64,000 nt of DNA, from assembly GCA_944322685.1 (NCBI GenBank), contig CALUPP010000016.1:1-64000 (forward strand), read 5' to 3'. Below, one piece after another: positions 12,554 to 33,909 of the stretch (position 1 is its first letter; every line of letters begins with the position of its first letter). The notes under the pieces are model-generated. The model ran no database searches. It was not told the DNA's origin and saw nothing but the letters and a program-made list of their open reading frames with translations. The translations under genes were made by a program, and so were the position numbers. The DNA is from Candidatus Gastranaerophilales bacterium (GTDB lineage: Bacteria; Cyanobacteriota; Vampirovibrionia; Gastranaerophilales; Gastranaerophilaceae).

Positions 12554-13774
12554 ATGCATAAAATAATCGAATTAGCCGAAGAAAAGGTAATTGAACAGTT
12601 TAAAAGGGTTGATAAAATAAAAGAATACAATCAGGAAAAGGTTTTGAGCGCTTTTCAGAAATATAAAATCGGTCTGGAGCATTTTGCGACGGTAAGCGGC
12701 TACGGACACGACGATATGGGGCGTGAGGCGCTGGATAATGTGTTTGCGGATGTTTTTAAAACCGAATCTGCGGTTGTGCGCAACCATTTTGTGTCCGGAA
12801 CCCATGCAATTGCGTGCGCGCTTTTCGGAAATTTGCGATATGGCGAAAAACTCGTGTCGGTTGCGGGCACACCTTATGACACAATGGAAGAAGTCATCGG
12901 AACAAGGGGCGACAAGCGTGCTTCTTTGATGGGGCACGGGGTTTTGTATGAAGAAATCCCTCTGAAAGACGGAATGGACGTTGATTTTGAGCTTTTGGAG
13001 AAAAAAATCGATAAATCCGTAAATATGGTTACAATTCAGCGCTCACGCGGGTATTCGCTGCGAAAATCGCTTGATATTGCAACTACAAAAAGGGTTATTG
13101 ATATCGTAAAAGCTAAAAATCCCGATTGCATCTGCTTTATCGACAACTGCTACTGCGAATTTGTCGAGGAAAAAGAACCGCTCGAAATCGGTGCGGATTT
13201 AATCGCGGGCTCGCTGATAAAAAACCCCGGGGGCGGCATTGTTGAAACCGGCGGGTACATTGCGGGCAAAAAAGAGTTCGTTGAACAGGCCGCAATGCGT
13301 TTAACCGCACCAGGAATCGGCGCAGAAGGCGGTGCGATGCTAAATCAGCTTCGTTTGATTTTTCAGGGGCTGTTTATGGCTCCGTCGGTTGTTGCAGATG
13401 CGGTTAAAGGGTCGATTTTGGCCTCTCAGGTGTTTGAGGATATCGGTTTTGTTTCGACTCCGAAGCCCCACGAGCCGCGCTGCGACCTTATTCAAACGAT
13501 AAAATTCGGCGCCCCCGAGCCTTTGATGGCATTTTGTAAGGCTTTGCAGTACTATTCTCCGGTTGAATCCTACCTGACGCCTATTCCTGACGAGGTTCCG
13601 GGCTATGAGGACAAGCTCATTATGGCCGGGGGAAGCTTTATTGAGGGTTCTACGATTGAGCTTTCGGCTGACGGCCCGATGCGGCCGCCTTATGCGGCTT
13701 ATATGCAGGGCGGGTTGAACTATGCGCATGTTAAAATTGCTTTGAACGGGATTTTGAAAGAATTGGGAATGTAG
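12554..13774 (+). CDS. Methionine gamma-lyase family (aluminium-resistance-like) PLP protein
   Basis: 406 residues, full length for the YnbB/aluminium-resistance group of PLP enzymes. Visible are the cofactor-region VSGTHAIACALFG (~81-93), FIDNCYCEF, the Schiff-base lysine in GSLIKNPGGGI (~220-230), and the family C-terminus with GSFIEGSTIELSADGPMR. Homologues are annotated as methionine gamma-lyase-like, but the physiological substrate is poorly known. GGAGAGG lies about 14 bases upstream of the ATG. It is transcribed alone, divergently from ssb. Confidence 0.85.
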   Translation: MHKIIELAEEKVIEQFKRVDKIKEYNQEKVLSAFQKYKIGLEHFATVSGYGHDDMGREALDNVFADVFKTESAVVRNHFVSGTHAIACALFGNLRYGEKLVSVAGTPYDTMEEVIGTRGDKRASLMGHGVLYEEIPLKDGMDVDFELLEKKIDKSVNMVTIQRSRGYSLRKSLDIATTKRVIDIVKAKNPDCICFIDNCYCEFVEEKEPLEIGADLIAGSLIKNPGGGIVETGGYIAGKKEFVEQAAMRLTAPGIGAEGGAMLNQLRLIFQGLFMAPSVVADAVKGSILASQVFEDIGFVSTPKPHEPRCDLIQTIKFGAPEPLMAFCKALQYYSPVESYLTPIPDEVPGYEDKLIMAGGSFIEGSTIELSADGPMRPPYAAYMQGGLNYAHVKIALNGILKELGM

Positions 13775-27573: not shown

Positions 27574-30500
27574 ATGCGTATAAATGCACTTTGTGCCGGT
27601 AAAAATTATCAATACAGCGTTTATAATGTGCAAAACAAAAAACCGACTCCGGCCACACCGGAAATAGTTAAAAATTCACAAAAATACATTTCCTCGACAA
27701 AAATATCTTTTAAAGGCGCGGTAAATCAGAACCAAATACTGGTTTTGGCCGCAGAATGCACTCCTTATTCGGTTTCGGGCGGATTGGGTGCGGTAATAAG
27801 GGACATGACGAAAGCCTACAAGGAAAATTACCCGCAAAAAGACTTGAGGCTCATGCTTCCCTTTTACAATGCCGGTTTTTCGGCGCAGGATGATAAAATT
27901 TTTTACGAAGTTGACGGTGTCAAGGCTGCGGATGGAAAAAATAACTTAAAATTTGAGCTTGAAAAGACCGGAATCAAAAAAGAGTTTTCTTATGGCGTTC
28001 GAAAAAGCACTGCGGAATTGTTCAAGGCAAAAAATCCAGAAAATGGCGTAACAACGTATTTTTTGTATTGCCCTGAGTTTAAAGATATGAAAAAGCAGTA
28101 TGCGTTGGATGATTATTCGCTGTTTGAGCGCTATTGTGCGTTCAGCAATGCGGCTGTTGCGCTGCGCGGGGCGCTACAAGATTCAAAAGAGGCATTCAAC
28201 CCGGCGATTTTGCATACAAATGACTGGCATACGGCGTTTGCGGCTTTTAGGGCCCAAAATTGCGAAAAAGACTTGAAAACCGTTCATGCACTTTTGAACG
28301 CAAACGCTCATTTTCAGGGAAAATACCTGCCTTTTGCCGCTGCGTTGAACGCTTTTACGCCCGAACAAATTGACCGCCTAATTCAAAAGCGGGAATTTAA
28401 GCGTGAGATTATGAATTTGGTTTTTGACAACAGTGAGCTGCTTTTGAATGAAAAAACGCGAAAATTTTCGACCGGAAATCTCAATCTCGATTTGAATGAC
28501 AAAGAATTTATGCTCGCAGTGCTTCAAAACACTGCCGAAAACTATCAAAAACTTTTTAATGACCCTAAAAACGAGCTTACGTATTCATGCATAAATGAAG
28601 TTATGAGAGAAGAGTTCAAAGACGTTTGCTGGGATGAAAATCGGGATTTTAATGCAACGGTTAACGCCCTGAAAGGCGCGGATGCCTGGTTTACAATCTC
28701 AAAAACGCATCTTGGCGAGCTTTTGACCCAGAGCGAGTTTTCTTCATTGGCTTTGTACAATATGATGCGCGTAAAACTCAATAAGGGCACCGCAATTCTC
28801 AATAAAATCGATATAAACAGATATGATCCCAAAAATCCGGAGCAGGTAAAATATCCGTATGATTTGAGCTCATTTGTGCCGGGAAAAGCGAAAAATAAGG
28901 AATTTTTATTCAGGCAGTTTTCGAAAAACAACATTATTAACAAAAATTTTGATAAAAAACTCATTAATAACCCAAATACGGCGCGGATTTCCGGTTATTT
29001 GAACCCGATGTATAAAAATTATCCGCTCGCAATGACTGTCAGCCGTTTTGATACGAACCAAAAAGGCTCGGATATCGCTTTAAAAACTGCGGAAATACTT
29101 TTAAAGCAAAATAAGAAAATAAATTTCGTGTTTGCGCTTCCTGATATAAACAACCTCAATGCGCCGCTTTTAAAATCGTTTGAGAAAAACGTAATTGAAA
29201 AATATCCGGGGCGGGTTGTGGTTATTGACGCGTATGTTCCGATAAATGAATATGCTGCGGCCGCAGATTTGTCAATTATACCGAGCCGCTCTGAGACTTG
29301 CGGGCTTGTGGGCTATCAGTCGATGAGAATGGGCGCAATTCCCGTCAGCGCACCGGTCGGAAGCATGAATGACTGCCTAATTACGCCGTATCATGACATA
29401 AAAACGGCAATGGGCTTCAAAGCGCCGCTTCATTTTTTGAATGCGTCAAATCCGGCTAAAATTCTTGCCTCAACGCTTAATACTGCGGTCGATTTTTATT
29501 ATGACGAGCCAAAACAGTTCCAAAGGATGATAAAAAACAGCATGCTCTACGACAGCAGCTGGAATTCTGCGGTGAAAGAGCAAAATGAGCTTTATGAAAA
29601 AACGGCTGCGGGGCTGGATATTGGGAATTTGACCTTAAACGACCTCAAAGAACCCGAAGAACGCCACAATTTGACCATATTGCGCAAAGACGATATTAAA
29701 AATCTGCAAAAAGCGGATGTTTTGGTGCTTTTGTCGCATGCTGACGATGAAATTTTCTTTTTACCGGTGATGGAGGCGCTAAATAAGGGAAAATCCGTTC
29801 AGTTTGTCTACACGGCAAAAGGCGAAAAGGGCCATTATAAAGCCGGTGCACCGAATACCGAAAATGAGCTGGTAAAACACAGAGAAAACGAACTTTTGGA
29901 TGCTTTAAACGCTCTTGGTGTGGAAAGAAGCCCGATTATGCTGGAAATTCCCGACCTTGAGCTGTGGAAAGAGGAAAATAAACGCGAAATTTCCGAACTT
30001 TATGAAAAAATTATCGAAAAAGTCCGCCCTCAAGAGGTATGGTCATTCGGCCCCGACGGAATTACCGGAAACAATGACCACAAAATCACCGGGAAATTGG
30101 CATTTGATACGGTAAACGCCTATAAAAAATCTCAAAACCCAGCCGCGAAGCTTTATCAGCCGGCATTAACACCGGCCGATGCTCAAAGATTCAAGGATTA
30201 TTCTTCCTACACGACGGATGCCTTTGATTTCGCAAGCCCGTCGAAAGTTCCGCCCGCTGGCCGTATTAATGCGGCAAAATACCGCGATAAATTCGAAAAA
30301 TCACTAAATATATACAAATCCCAATGGACTCCGAATGAAGTCAAGGCAATCGCGGATTTTTATACAAATACACCGGTTTCTTATACCTCTTTGGAGACAT
30401 TTCCTGAGGTGGACGGGGCAGAAAATCCCTGGCTGGAAAGAGAAAACAAGTTCAAAACAACTTACGGAAGCGATTTCGAGGAATTTAACTCCGGAATTTC

Positions 30501-30858
30501 GTTCAAACCGGCCGGAAAAAACTATAAAGTTAATCTATACCTCGGAAATTTCAACAAAGACAAAAAACACATCTGGGTTGAAACTTCGGGACTTAAAAAT
30601 ATTGATACTGGTGCTGATATTTTGAACGAACTTTTTGAAAACGCCTCAAGAATAACCAAAATACCTCAGTTTAGCGAGGTTGAATATTTTGATATCGTAT
30701 TTTATGCCCCGAATGGCAAGCTGAAAATACTTTTCCCGGTCAATGAAATGCAAGATTTCAAGGGAATGGGCGCTGCTTTTGCAAGAAATCCGATATCAAC
30801 CCTTTTTGACTTCAGACGTAAAAAACCGGGTTCAAATATTAGATACAGCTATATTTAA
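27574..30858 (+). CDS. Glycogen-synthase-like GT5 fused to PIG-L/LmbE deacetylase
   Basis: 1094 residues in three parts. Residues 1-50 are an extension with ISFKG at 44-48. Residues ~54-690 resemble GT5 glycogen synthase: CTPYSVSGGLGAVIRDM replaces the usual KTGGLGDV motif, LHTNDWHTAF matches the DWH/Q region, and PSRSETCGLVGYQSMRMGAIPV matches the C-terminal catalytic region. Residues ~712-900 are a PIG-L family domain with SHADDE near 720-725, equivalent to the AHPDDE zinc site, and a downstream NDHKITG His motif. The tail (~900-1094) is unrecognised. GT5 enzymes extend alpha-1,4-glucans and PIG-L enzymes remove N-acetyl groups. The fusion and the Lys-to-Ser change suggest a non-standard polymer or donor. 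Its stop overlaps the convergent gene tail to tail. Confidence 0.85.
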   Translation: MRINALCAGKNYQYSVYNVQNKKPTPATPEIVKNSQKYISSTKISFKGAVNQNQILVLAAECTPYSVSGGLGAVIRDMTKAYKENYPQKDLRLMLPFYNAGFSAQDDKIFYEVDGVKAADGKNNLKFELEKTGIKKEFSYGVRKSTAELFKAKNPENGVTTYFLYCPEFKDMKKQYALDDYSLFERYCAFSNAAVALRGALQDSKEAFNPAILHTNDWHTAFAAFRAQNCEKDLKTVHALLNANAHFQGKYLPFAAALNAFTPEQIDRLIQKREFKREIMNLVFDNSELLLNEKTRKFSTGNLNLDLNDKEFMLAVLQNTAENYQKLFNDPKNELTYSCINEVMREEFKDVCWDENRDFNATVNALKGADAWFTISKTHLGELLTQSEFSSLALYNMMRVKLNKGTAILNKIDINRYDPKNPEQVKYPYDLSSFVPGKAKNKEFLFRQFSKNNIINKNFDKKLINNPNTARISGYLNPMYKNYPLAMTVSRFDTNQKGSDIALKTAEILLKQNKKINFVFALPDINNLNAPLLKSFEKNVIEKYPGRVVVIDAYVPINEYAAAADLSIIPSRSETCGLVGYQSMRMGAIPVSAPVGSMNDCLITPYHDIKTAMGFKAPLHFLNASNPAKILASTLNTAVDFYYDEPKQFQRMIKNSMLYDSSWNSAVKEQNELYEKTAAGLDIGNLTLNDLKEPEERHNLTILRKDDIKNLQKADVLVLLSHADDEIFFLPVMEALNKGKSVQFVYTAKGEKGHYKAGAPNTENELVKHRENELLDALNALGVERSPIMLEIPDLELWKEENKREISELYEKIIEKVRPQEVWSFGPDGITGNNDHKITGKLAFDTVNAYKKSQNPAAKLYQPALTPADAQRFKDYSSYTTDAFDFASPSKVPPAGRINAAKYRDKFEKSLNIYKSQWTPNEVKAIADFYTNTPVSYTSLETFPEVDGAENPWLERENKFKTTYGSDFEEFNSGISFKPAGKNYKVNLYLGNFNKDKKHIWVETSGLKNIDTGADILNELFENASRITKIPQFSEVEYFDIVFYAPNGKLKILFPVNEMQDFKGMGAAFARNPISTLFDFRRKKPGSNIRYSYI

Positions 30859-32033
30859 ACATATTGATTTATCAATGTTTTTAAATCATCGCTGTTCATT
30901 TTAAATTTTGTGTTTTTGCTTGAATAATTGTAGTTTTCGGGCAGCGCTTTTGCGTTATTCCAGAGTTTTTCGCGGTTTTTGAAATCCTCCTGAGGCAAAA
31001 TAACGTATCTGTCCTCCAATTCCAGCGTGTTTTTTTCTTCTACGGGAGAAATAAAGTCCTCATTCAGCTTTTCCCCCGGCCTTGCGCCGATAAATTCGAC
31101 TTTTGCATCGGGAGCGACCTGTTTTGCAAGCTCGAGAATGCTTGTATTTTTGAGCTTGGGAATAAAAATTTCCGCACCGTTCATCATTTCGATTCCCGTA
31201 AGAATAAGTTCGGAAGCTTGTTGCGGGGTCATGAAAAATCTGGTCATATCTTTATCCGTGACCTTAATTGTGCCGGATTTGCTTTGTTCTTTGAAAAGCG
31301 GGATAATGCTGCCCCTGCTGCCGAGAACATTGCCCAAACGCACGCAGCTGAACCTCGGGCCGCCCTCTTCGGTGTATTTGTTTGCATGATTAAAGAGTTT
31401 TTCTGACACAAATTTTGTTGCACCGTAAAGATTTGACGGTGAAGAAGCTTTGTCCGAGCTGACAAAGAGCACGCGTTTAACATCGTTGTCAATTGCGGCG
31501 TTGATTATGTTTCTTGCGCCGTCAATGTTGGTTTTTACGGCTTCTTCAGGATTTTCTTCGCAAAAGGGTACATGTTTCATCGCTGCTGTGTGAATAACCG
31601 CGTCAACATTGCGAAATGCCCGCTGCAAAGCCTTTTCATCCCGTACATCGCCGATTATGTACTCGAGTTTTTGATTTTCCCTGCTTTTTTGCTTCATAAC
31701 GTGCTGTTTTAGCTCATCGCGCGAATATACGATGACTTTTTTCGGCGAATAGTTCTCAAAAAGCGAATTTATCAGATAATTCCCGATTGTGCCCGTTCCT
31801 CCGGTTATGAGGATTGTTTTTCCGTTCAAATCGAACTTTTTCTGCGGATTTTTGTTTTGTTCGCCGAAATTTATATTTGAAGTGAAATAAATTATGCTGC
31901 TGCGGCCGATTCGCGGCATTTCTGACGGAGATTTTGAGATATTATCCGGTTTTGAGTTGATTTCCGGAGGATTATTTCTGTTGTTTGTGCCAATATTTGC
32001 GTAAGTGTAAGATTTGATTGCCTGAATTTTCAT
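30855..32033 (-). CDS. CapD/PseB-like nucleotide-sugar 4,6-dehydratase with N-terminal extension
   Basis: 392 residues. The NAD-binding core starts near residue 68 with GKTILITGGTGTIGN. The motifs AAMKHVPFCEENPEEAVKTN and SSDKASSPSNLYGATK match the polysaccharide-biosynthesis branch (UDP-GlcNAc 4,6-dehydratases PseB/FlaA1/CapD). The first ~67 residues are a non-conserved Asn/Ser/Pro-rich leader with INFGEQN, resembling the ISFKG and LSFKR leaders of the two adjacent enzymes. Role: modified sugar synthesis for a surface or storage polymer (inference). It follows the GH77-like gene with a 58-base gap on the same strand. Confidence 0.85.
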   Translation of the reverse strand: MKIQAIKSYTYANIGTNNRNNPPEINSKPDNISKSPSEMPRIGRSSIIYFTSNINFGEQNKNPQKKFDLNGKTILITGGTGTIGNYLINSLFENYSPKKVIVYSRDELKQHVMKQKSRENQKLEYIIGDVRDEKALQRAFRNVDAVIHTAAMKHVPFCEENPEEAVKTNIDGARNIINAAIDNDVKRVLFVSSDKASSPSNLYGATKFVSEKLFNHANKYTEEGGPRFSCVRLGNVLGSRGSIIPLFKEQSKSGTIKVTDKDMTRFFMTPQQASELILTGIEMMNGAEIFIPKLKNTSILELAKQVAPDAKVEFIGARPGEKLNEDFISPVEEKNTLELEDRYVILPQEDFKNREKLWNNAKALPENYNYSSKNTKFKMNSDDLKTLINQYV

Positions 32034-32091
32034 TTTTAAGTTAACCTTTTTGATTTTTTGCTTATTTTGTTGAATTGAGCTTTTTTTATGC

Positions 32092-33909
32092 TCAATGTTT
32101 GTGTTTTTGTGCTTTTTCGTGCCTGATTCCGATTGTCAGCGCTCCGGCGGCCAGCATTAGCAGCCCGATTCCTGCGGTTGAGAAAAATTTGTGCTTTTTC
32201 AAGGGCGCTGCGGGCTCTTTTTCAAGAAGAATGTCGCGATATTTTATCAGTTTTTTGTACAAATCCGGTTCCGATTTATCCAGCCCTTTTGCCTTGAAAA
32301 CCTTAGCCAGGGCATCCATCGGGTTAAATCCGAAACCCTCTCGCACGGCTTTTATGTATGCTGTTTCAAAATCGTCCCAAATTTTGAAGCTGTAAGCCTT
32401 GGGATTGTTGAAATTTTGCATATCAAACCGTTCTCTGCACCCAAAAACGTCCATATAAAACAACATATTGTTCTTTGCGCTCATCGGCTCGGCAAATTTT
32501 GCCTTTGCAAATTCGATTGGGTTTTGCAAAATTGTTTCCGAAATATTCAAAATCCTCGCCAGGGGCGCAATCTGGTCTTTTTTGTATAATTTTGCGGTTT
32601 TTTTGCCGTTTTCTATCACAAAATCGGGCGCTCCCTCCGCGATTTGCCGCAAAGGCTGCGGATCGTGGTTTCCCACCCCGATAACGAACTCATCCGGCGA
32701 CCATTTTCGATAATTTAAAAATGCGTCGTTTGTTCCCCAGTTTTCGCTCAGATGCGCGGAGCTGTAAACCTTTTTTCTGCCTTTCAAGGGGTCAATAAGC
32801 TCGTTGTCGTTTTTCATTGCTCTGAATTCTTCTGAAGAAGCCTCAAATTCATGTAAAAGATTGTTCACGTCAAAATCGCCGCCCTTTACCTCTTTTACCC
32901 AGCCCTCAATCAGCTTTAAAAGCGAATCGCCCATCTCTTTTCGGCTTTCTGTGCCGTCTTTTTGGGTTAAAAGCGGGGTTACGTAGCACCAGGAAACATC
33001 AAAACGTATGGAATCATAGCGTCTTGCTGCGAGCTGGACTTTTTTCTTCAATAGTTTGTGCGATGCGCTCTGCGAATCGAGAATATTGTCATAATTCAAG
33101 GCCGGCAGCCCCCAGGAACGCAGTCCTATATAAGTATCTTTTGCAAAAGCGTCGGGAAACGCGGCAACTTCTTTCGGAGAAAAGCCGATTTCGCAATCTC
33201 CGTATAATTTCAGCCCCATTTTATTCAGTTCGCTGCGGGCAATTTTCAGATGTTCTTCTGCGAGAAACTGTTTGAATTTAAAAAACGATTTTTCTTCCTC
33301 CGAAGCATTTTTTGTCAGCGGTTCAAGCCAATCCAGGTTTTCTTTTTCAAAAATCTTGTAATTTTTTTTCAAATCGCTGCTTTCATCAATATTTTTGAAC
33401 CGGTCAAACGCTTTTTTTAGCATTTTGTCAAACGGCGAATCGTCATCCATAACGTTTTTATAGTTGGCCTGGTTCGGAAAGCTTATATTTTTCTTAACAA
33501 CCTCCTGAATGTCCTCCTGCGTGATAAGACGGCCGAATTTATCTTCGGTAAGAAGCTGCGGATTGATAACATGGTTTGCGAGCGGCAGCGCTGCTGAGTC
33601 ATACGCGCAATATATACCGTTTTTAGGGGAAATCGGGCCCTGGGGTAAAATTTCTATTGTATTTATGCCCAGATAGGTCTTCATTGTTTCAAAAAACTTC
33701 AAAGATTCTTGCGATGAAAGGGTGCCGAGGCCTGTATTGCTGCTGCGGTTTTGGGGAAGGCAGGTGTCATGCACAATAAGTATGGATTTTCCGGTTTGAC
33801 CGGTTTTTTGCTTTGCCGCATTTAGGGTTTGTGTGTAATCGGCAATTTCCTCCTTGCGCAATTTACGCTTAAAGCTCAAATTTCCGCCGGTTGCAGCTTT
33901 TACTCGCAT
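32092..33909 (-). CDS. Divergent GH77-like 4-alpha-glucanotransferase with membrane anchor
   Basis: 605 residues. Similarity to the GH77 amylomaltase group is visible in YLGINTIEILPQGPISP, GLKLYGDCEIGFSPKEVAAFPDAF (written across residues ~231-254), the nucleophile-region RYDSIRFDVSWCY and the GVGNHDPQPLR region near where MalQ has THDNDT. The leader contains NLSFKRK at ~10-16. A C-terminal membrane helix (~580-597, TAGIGLLMLAAGALTIGI) followed by basic residues would anchor it, which is unusual for this cytosolic family. Such enzymes transfer alpha-1,4-glucan segments. AAGAGGA lies about 10 bases before the start. The distant similarity makes the exact activity uncertain. Confidence 0.7.
   Translation of the reverse strand: MRVKAATGGNLSFKRKLRKEEIADYTQTLNAAKQKTGQTGKSILIVHDTCLPQNRSSNTGLGTLSSQESLKFFETMKTYLGINTIEILPQGPISPKNGIYCAYDSAALPLANHVINPQLLTEDKFGRLITQEDIQEVVKKNISFPNQANYKNVMDDDSPFDKMLKKAFDRFKNIDESSDLKKNYKIFEKENLDWLEPLTKNASEEEKSFFKFKQFLAEEHLKIARSELNKMGLKLYGDCEIGFSPKEVAAFPDAFAKDTYIGLRSWGLPALNYDNILDSQSASHKLLKKKVQLAARRYDSIRFDVSWCYVTPLLTQKDGTESRKEMGDSLLKLIEGWVKEVKGGDFDVNNLLHEFEASSEEFRAMKNDNELIDPLKGRKKVYSSAHLSENWGTNDAFLNYRKWSPDEFVIGVGNHDPQPLRQIAEGAPDFVIENGKKTAKLYKKDQIAPLARILNISETILQNPIEFAKAKFAEPMSAKNNMLFYMDVFGCRERFDMQNFNNPKAYSFKIWDDFETAYIKAVREGFGFNPMDALAKVFKAKGLDKSEPDLYKKLIKYRDILLEKEPAAPLKKHKFFSTAGIGLLMLAAGALTIGIRHEKAQKHKH

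What the first reader, a model, noticed from the sequence alone, without database searches (positions are those of the whole stretch)
27574..33909. Shared N-terminal aromatic motif on three neighbouring carbohydrate enzymes
Directly seen: ISFKG in the GT5/PIG-L protein (44-48), INFGE in the CapD-like protein (in a ~67-residue leader), and LSFKR in the GH77-like protein (~11-15). Each lies in a polar, family-foreign N-terminal extension. The fourth enzyme (GH57) has none. Inference: it may be a lineage-specific sorting or docking tag placing these enzymes at one site, such as a granule, membrane patch or compartment.
Basis: partly seen in the sequence, partly recalled or inferred. Interest (0 to 1): 0.7.

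Follow-up and report, generated by a model that had tools for sequence, protein, structure and literature searches.

The report
Lineage-wide N-terminal docking tag
Three neighbouring sugar enzymes in a gut relative of cyanobacteria carry the same short tag at their front ends; the tag turns out to be used across the whole bacterial order on dozens of unrelated proteins and sits next to a gene resembling the docking part of a protein-export machine, so it is probably an address label that nobody seems to have described.

Summary
The three motifs are where stated (INFGE is residues 54-58). They belong to a two-part N-terminal tag: M-[KR]-[IV]-N-x-[IV]-[NS], a polar Asn/Ser/Gln-rich linker (5-64 residues), then [PIV]-[SN]-Phe-[KG]-[GAR]. 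It marks roughly 3% of proteins in this Candidatus Gastranaerophilales genome and recurs in other families of the order. N-terminal occurrences exceed shuffled leaders (37 vs 15.4±3.6), protein interiors and reversed or Phe-to-Tyr controls; in 80 independent loci a trained matrix scores 34 N-termini vs 6 shuffled and 0/950 interiors. Homologues of the tagged GH77-like enzyme keep the Phe (invariant in 25 proteins at 20-25% identity); canonical MalQ and GlgA copies lack the tag. It is not specific to carbohydrate enzymes. The best lead to function: across 80 loci, 57 of 79 genes directly downstream of a soluble protein containing only the FlhA/SctV export-gate docking domain are tagged (13% of distant genes). 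All 37 genomes searched also keep a second flagellar-type export core, even those without the flagellar set. I propose the tag is a docking signal read by this FlhA_C-type receptor, probably for type III-type export; export itself is unproven.

The parts
27574..30858 (+). Tagged GT5-like glycosyltransferase / PIG-L deacetylase fusion (1094 aa); a divergent paralogue, the canonical GlgA is on contig C33
   Evidence: Pfam Glyco_transf_5 6.6e-23, PIG-L 4.3e-18; untagged 488-aa GlgA at G000:C33
27574..27702 (+). Leader of the GT5/PIG-L protein: head MRINAL + polar linker (residues 1-43)
   Evidence: head consensus
27703..27717 (+). Tag core ISFKG (residues 44-48)
30855..32033 (-). Tagged CapD/Polysacc_synt_2-like NAD-dependent epimerase/dehydratase (392 aa)
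   Evidence: Pfam PF02719 1.2e-91, domain from residue 74
31875..32033 (-). Leader of the CapD-like protein: head MKIQAIKS + polar linker (residues 1-53)
   Evidence: query residues 16-392 align with G027, whereas G001/G002/G014/G017 align only from residue 67-69
31860..31874 (-). Tag core INFGE (residues 54-58)
32092..33909 (-). Tagged GH77-like 4-alpha-glucanotransferase (605 aa); candidate catalytic residues R302/D304, E373, H415/D416 conserved in the family
   Evidence: Pfam PF02446 4.1e-8; invariant and nearly invariant columns; canonical MalQ on C85
33880..33909 (-). Leader of the GH77-like protein: MRVKAATGGN (residues 1-10), predicted disordered
   Evidence: AlphaFold pLDDT < 50 for residues 1-11
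33865..33879 (-). Tag core LSFKR (residues 11-15); F13 invariant in 25 family members at 20-25% identity
32125..32187 (-). C-terminal hydrophobic segment of the GH77-like protein (possible tail anchor); similar tails in L062-L065
34115..36358 (+). GH57 enzyme without leader or tag (negative comparison)
   Evidence: Pfam PF03065 8.7e-57, domain from residue 8

Best explanation
The motif is the core of a bipartite N-terminal address tag used throughout Candidatus Gastranaerophilales. Shown: a short hydrophobic head at the extreme N-terminus (M-[KR]-[IV]-N-x-[IV]-[NS]), a flexible Asn/Ser/Gln-rich linker, and a core [PIV]-[SN]-Phe-[KG]-[GAR] just before the folded domain, on specialised paralogues of many unrelated proteins and not on their housekeeping copies. 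Inferred: the Phe core is a linear docking motif read by a receptor of the FlhA/SctV cytosolic-domain type. The prime candidate is the soluble, order-wide FlhA_C-only protein ('FlhAc') whose downstream gene is usually tagged, or the related gate protein FlhA2. Further inferred: docking delivers the proteins to the second, conserved flagellar-type export core (FliE/F/G-like/H/I, FlhA2, FliP2, FlhB2). The GT5/PIG-L, CapD-like and GH77-like enzymes would then be a small set of substrates acting on glucan or surface polysaccharide outside the cytosol or at the envelope.
For: Enrichment and controls. Protein-level rather than DNA-element conservation: 53 distinct 15-mers encode 57 tags, with both Ser codon families. 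Bipartite structure: [IV] at position 6 in 48% of tagged vs 16% of untagged proteins, [NSQT] at position 7 in 52% vs 20%; linker rich in N/Q/S, poor in L/E/F/C. Conservation across homologues with different leaders. FlhAc: Pfam FHIPEP only over the cytosolic domain, matches FlhA_C/SctV_C structures by sequence (3mix 5.5e-41) and by fold (6ch2 1.2e-21), and is closer to FlhA2 (~30% identity, E ~1e-48 to 1e-31) than to flagellar FlhA (~24%, 1e-21 to 1e-10). The gene immediately 3' of FlhAc is tagged in 57/79 loci vs 35/265 distant genes and 4/78 genes immediately 5'; tagged neighbours belong to several families. The FliI-like ATPase of the second core lies within 8 kb of FlhAc in L237, L257 and L268, and a FlhAc-like fragment abuts FlhA2 in G068. 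All 37 genomes keep FlhA2, FliP2 and FlhB2 even where the flagellar set is missing. Precedents: FlhA_C binds a Tyr plus a hydrophobic residue (PMC5932034); early flagellar substrates carry an N-terminal hydrophobic signal plus a separate downstream gate recognition motif (PMC8983047).
Against: No export or binding is shown. In FlhAc the chaperone cleft is only partly conserved: the Asp456 equivalent is kept, but the Phe459 position is a nearly invariant Thr and the Thr490 position is Arg in the profile. Some tagged proteins have internal membrane spans (L002, L023, L024), unusual for type III substrates. The linkage is dominated by one family (FlhAc-GH77), so loci are not independent events; about 20 of the 79 loci have an untagged 3' neighbour. 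Known type III signals rarely show such a sequence consensus. In GH77-like proteins Phe13 lies at the disordered/ordered boundary and could pack on the domain.
Confidence: 0.42

Rival explanations
1. Intracellular scaffold: the tag docks enzymes onto a soluble FlhAc ring (FlhA_C domains form nonamers in known systems) that acts as a cytosolic assembly platform or substrate-channelling hub, with no export.
For: FlhAc lacks the membrane part and has its own N-terminal beta-alpha-beta domain and coiled coil; its chaperone cleft is altered; partner enzymes are ordinary metabolic activities.
Against: FlhA_C-type domains are export docking platforms wherever studied; tagged families include a 5'-nucleotidase/metallophosphatase type that is normally exported.
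Confidence: 0.24
2. The tag is a sorting signal read by an unrelated, unidentified receptor (membrane patch, pole, granule or inclusion); the FlhAc operon is specific to the GH77-like enzyme and incidental to the tag.
For: Tagged bodies are very diverse and include membrane proteins; most FlhAc linkage comes from one gene pair; most tagged genes in G000 are not near FlhAc.
Against: Tagged genes next to FlhAc also come from other families: GT5-like in G000 and G001, the PSFKAGG/SFKG families in L194/L202/L206/L245, and the L257 pair.
Confidence: 0.22
3. Structural element: the conserved Phe simply caps or packs against the following domain, and the similar leaders arose by recombination of N-termini between genes.
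For: In the GH77-like model the core sits right before the first helix (residues 19-35) with rising confidence.
Against: The same core precedes unrelated folds at 5-64 residues from the start; a separate head co-occurs with it (odds ratio 6.6, p 1e-9), while control motifs do not.
Confidence: 0.08
4. Chance or composition artefact of Asn/Lys/Ser-rich N-termini.
For: Motif is short and degenerate; some matrix hits are clearly false (TsaD-like L079:11263, and probably SepF-like L022/L129).
Against: Shuffles of the same leaders, reversed and Tyr controls, and independent loci all show a clear excess; Phe conserved in homologues.
Confidence: 0.03

Closest known systems
Two-part export signals of early flagellar rod/hook subunits (N-terminal hydrophobic signal + gate recognition motif; PMC8983047)
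   Same: A hydrophobic element at the extreme N-terminus and a separate short hydrophobic motif downstream, joined by a spacer, read by a flagellar-type export gate.
   Different: Here the downstream core is [SN]F[KG][GAR], it is carried by enzymes rather than rod/hook subunits, spacing varies from 5 to 64 residues, and export is not shown.
Chaperone docking on the FlhA cytosolic domain (FliT/FliS with FlhA_C, PDB 6CH2/6CH3; PMC5932034)
   Same: FlhA_C recognises one aromatic residue plus a nearby hydrophobic residue; FlhAc has this fold and keeps the cleft Asp.
   Different: Known ligands are helical chaperone segments with Tyr; here a Phe in a disordered leader. FlhAc is a separate soluble protein with a changed cleft (Phe459 to Thr).
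Injectisome (type III) effector N-terminal signals
   Same: Disordered, polar, N/S/Q/I-rich N-terminus on proteins without a Sec signal (general resemblance, from own knowledge).
   Different: Effector signals have no strict consensus; this tag does. No needle, translocon or chaperone genes were searched for.
Cargo-targeting peptides of encapsulins and bacterial microcompartments
   Same: Short peptides on unrelated enzymes that bring them to one place.
   Different: No shell or encapsulin link was seen; those peptides are usually C-terminal or amphipathic helices (own knowledge). Not tested further.

Membership tests
   37 vs 15.4+/-3.6 shuffled and 15.8 interior; 34 vs 6 shuffled and 0/950 interior in independent loci
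   GH77-like F13 invariant in 25 proteins; canonical MalQ/GlgA untagged. CapD-like homologues differ: some lack the leader
   needs a fusion experiment
Type III/flagellar export signal | Organism encodes a flagellar or type III export core | tested here: met
   FlhA2, FliP2 and FlhB2 in 37/37 genomes; FliF/FliH/FliI/FliE and FliG-like genes in the operon
Type III/flagellar export signal | N-terminal, disordered, no Sec signal peptide | tested here: met
   leader composition; pLDDT < 50 for residues 1-11 of the GH77-like protein
Type III/flagellar export signal | Substrate is exported in a manner dependent on the core | not testable with these tools
   no secretion data
FlhA/SctV export gate (FlhAc) | FlhA_C fold | tested here: met
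   PF00771 cytosolic part; 3mix 5.5e-41; Foldseek 6ch2 1.2e-21
FlhA/SctV export gate (FlhAc) | N-terminal transmembrane gate domain | tested here: not met
   486-492 aa; PF00771 matched only at profile positions 321-653; own N-terminal domain instead. FlhAc is not filed as an export gate
FlhA/SctV export gate (FlhAc) | Conserved chaperone cleft Asp456/Phe459/Thr490 | tested here: inconclusive
   Asp kept (D253 nearly invariant), Phe replaced by Thr (T256 nearly invariant), Thr490 position Arg in the profile

The most novel reading that the evidence does not exclude
Gastranaerophilales run an undescribed flagellum-derived secretion system whose enzyme cargo carries a true consensus address tag ([PIV][SN]F[KG][GAR] plus an N-terminal hydrophobic head), read by a free-standing FlhA_C receptor encoded beside cargo genes, so that non-photosynthetic cyanobacterial relatives in animal guts export sugar-active enzymes through a repurposed flagellar gate.
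Probability: 0.33. Interest if true: 0.9.

Novelty: new variant of a known kind. Interest (0 to 1): 0.73.

Why it matters
A consensus, genome-wide address tag would let one list the whole cargo set of a poorly understood gut lineage from sequence alone. It gives a candidate function to the 'incomplete flagellar gene set' that earlier authors read as loss of motility (PMC4040986), and offers a directly testable receptor-ligand pair (FlhAc and tag peptide). If it is a type III signal, it would be unusual in having a readable consensus.

Tried and rejected
Single-sequence scan of genome contigs with the GT5/PIG-L protein found no relatives. DNA patterns for the tag are too degenerate to count across genomes. 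A mobile DNA element inserted in frame was rejected: 53 different 15-mers for 57 tags. Carbohydrate-specific tag rejected. Absence of any type III machinery, which would have refuted the export idea, was looked for and not found. Paper searches found no description of the tag, of FlhAc or of a type III system in this lineage, within an open-access library only. Some matrix hits are false or doubtful (TsaD-like L079:11263; SepF-like L022/L129, where FKGYEV may be part of the domain; FlgC-like L150).
Full report
WHAT IS THERE. The window is part of a 1.9-Mb draft genome (G000, contig C16). Its nearest named relatives by the FlhAc gene are Candidatus Gastranaerophilales MAGs (63-65% identity; NCBI order in the Melainabacteria). 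The motifs are ISFKG (44-48), INFGE (54-58) and LSFKR (11-15); GH57 has none.

IS IT MORE THAN CHANCE. I took stretches covering 1.11 Mb (58%) of the genome and called ORFs mechanically. The loose core [IVLPTAMN][SNT]F[KGR][GASN] occurs 37 times in residues 3-80, against 15.4+/-3.6 in shuffles of the same leaders and 15.8 from interiors; the reversed motif gives 9, Tyr instead of Phe 9. The excess sits mainly in the first 20 residues. In G034 (another family of the order) the count is 12 vs 2.8, though the reversed motif is also raised there (13 vs 5.2); in G008 it is 9 vs 4.4. A 10-column matrix refined on the three genomes converged on [QN]-N-[PI]-[SN]-F-[KGR]-[GRA]. On 1203 ORFs of 80 loci not used for training it scored 34 N-termini at >=10, against 6 shuffled and 0 of 950 interiors.

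ANATOMY. The tag has two parts. A strict head (M, optional [KNRQE], [IV], [NSQ]) co-occurs with the Phe core (22 of 87 head-bearing proteins vs 86 of 1753 others; odds ratio 6.6, p=1e-9) but not with reversed, Tyr or Leu controls. In 67 tagged proteins position 6 is [IV] in 48% (16% in untagged) and position 7 is [NSQT] in 52% (20%). The linker is enriched in N, Q and S, depleted in L, E, F and C, median 17 residues. The tag is conserved as protein, not as DNA. In the GH77-like model residues 1-11 are disordered and the core abuts the first helix.

CONSERVATION. Relatives of the window's GH77-like enzyme keep the tag although their leaders differ: MKIQSQKNISFGRTL (L061), MRIHPASHNINFGRKL (L064), MKINAVSQVSFGNAL (L068), MKVLGIGARNVSFGRKP (L074); canonical MalQ copies lack it (L073, L076, L078). 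In an alignment of 25 family members at 20-25% identity to the window protein, Phe13 is one of 35 invariant columns, alongside the candidate catalytic residues. GT5-like relatives show SFAG, SFSG or SFGK before the catalytic domain, while ordinary GlgA starts directly. Other tagged families keep the core as well: a metallophosphatase (QSFKAATI, PSFKAATV, TSFKSANV, QTFKGATI), a small unknown family (PNFKGNVI, TNFQGNLI, QNFQGKIN) and two families with SFKG-type cores. For the CapD-like protein the picture is mixed: G027 shares the leader, but the best matches in congeners G001 and G002 align only from residue 67-68 in 328-336-aa frames.

WHAT IS TAGGED. Pfam hits among about 30 tagged bodies: GT5 (two), GH77, CapD, PIG-L, RNase T exonuclease, zeta-toxin-like kinase, 5'-nucleotidase without a Sec signal, HD, nucleotidyltransferase, AAA and FtsH-like proteins; about two thirds have no family. 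So this is not a carbohydrate tag. Tagged genes cluster on the chromosome (7 adjacent pairs vs 1.5 expected, p=0.001).

THE LEAD TO FUNCTION. Searching for export machinery, I found that all 37 relatives carry FHIPEP proteins. Besides a flagellar FlhA present in part of them, every genome has a second FlhA of about 700 aa, with second FliP and FlhB copies, in an operon with FliF-, FliG_M-, FliH- and FliI-like genes and FliE. This set is kept where the flagellar set is missing (for example G003, G004, G008, G012). A third homologue, FlhAc, has only the cytosolic domain behind a small beta-alpha-beta domain and a coiled coil. It matches FlhA_C/SctV_C structures by sequence and fold, and it is closer to FlhA2 than to flagellar FlhA. 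One scan of GTDB contigs gave 216 FlhAc loci, of which 80 were read. The next gene is tagged in 57 of 79, against 35 of 265 distant genes and 4 of 78 genes on the other side. Usually it is a tagged GH77-like enzyme 20-80 bp downstream on the same strand, but in other clades it belongs to other tagged families (L194, L202, L206, L245, L257; GT5-like in G000 and G001). The FliI-like ATPase of the second core lies near FlhAc in three loci, and a FlhAc-like fragment abuts FlhA2 in G068.

MECHANISM. FlhA_C domains recognise an aromatic plus a hydrophobic residue of chaperones in a cleft around Asp456 (PMC5932034). Early flagellar substrates use a hydrophobic N-terminal signal plus a separate gate recognition motif (PMC8983047). 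The tag has the same logic: hydrophobic head, spacer, hydrophobic/aromatic core. FlhAc keeps the Asp but has Thr at the Phe459 position, so it would read a different ligand. I therefore propose that the tag docks on FlhAc or FlhA2 and that its proteins are cargo of the second core. Shown: tag, head, conservation, clustering, FlhAc fold and linkage. Inferred: binding, export, and the role of the three enzymes. Stepwise confidence: shared protein-level tag 0.93; docking/sorting function 0.75; FlhA_C-type receptor 0.5; export 0.35-0.4.

LIMITS. ORFs were called mechanically and starts may be wrong. The matrix was trained on part of the data. Loci share ancestry, so neighbour counts are not independent. 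The 80 loci are the best of 216. Distribution outside the order is little tested. Soo et al. (PMC4040986) noted a 'subset' of flagellar genes in most Gastranaerophilales and read it as loss of a functional flagellum; I found no paper proposing a second system, but only open-access papers were searched.

Noticed in passing
G000 contig C3 = L003:3826-10681; G008 L133:15080-19998; all 37 relatives: A second flagellar-type export core (FliE, FliF, FliG-like, FliH, FlhA2, FliI; FliP2 and FlhB2 elsewhere) is conserved in every genome, even those lacking flagellar FlhA/FliP/FlhB.
   Followed up: partly
L038:7426-8886 (G000:C34) and L191-L270: FlhAc: soluble FlhA_C domain behind a small beta-alpha-beta domain and coiled coil; order-wide, commonly preceded by a nucleoside-phosphorylase-like gene and followed by a tagged GH77-like gene.
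   Followed up: yes
L133:7585-8559; L244:2610-3635: Proteins beginning MGMAASQARYLGLTARKTNVEYEGQQ, near the second export core in G008; no Pfam family; might be structural substrates of it.
   Followed up: no
window 32092-33909; L062-L065: GH77-like enzymes end in a hydrophobic segment followed by a charged tail, as in tail-anchored proteins.
   Followed up: no
window 27574-30858: Fusion of a GT5-like domain with a PIG-L deacetylase and a further C-terminal region; the usual Lys of the ADP-glucose-binding KxGGL motif appears replaced (SVSGGL), so the GT5 activity is uncertain.
   Followed up: no
L015:14332-15930: 5'-nucleotidase-type protein (Metallophos + 5_nucleotid_C) with a short tag-like N-terminus (MEEMKVNFRAQ) instead of a Sec signal.
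   Followed up: partly
L176:11906-12607 and 12658-13284 (G040, sister family): Two adjacent paralogues with tag-like starts (MITAITPTATPYFGK, MLNAIALTSTPYFGK), a possible variant tag outside the order.
   Followed up: no
G000:C33:9779-11044 and C85:3336-3797: Canonical untagged GlgA and MalQ copies exist, so the window enzymes are specialised paralogues.
   Followed up: partly
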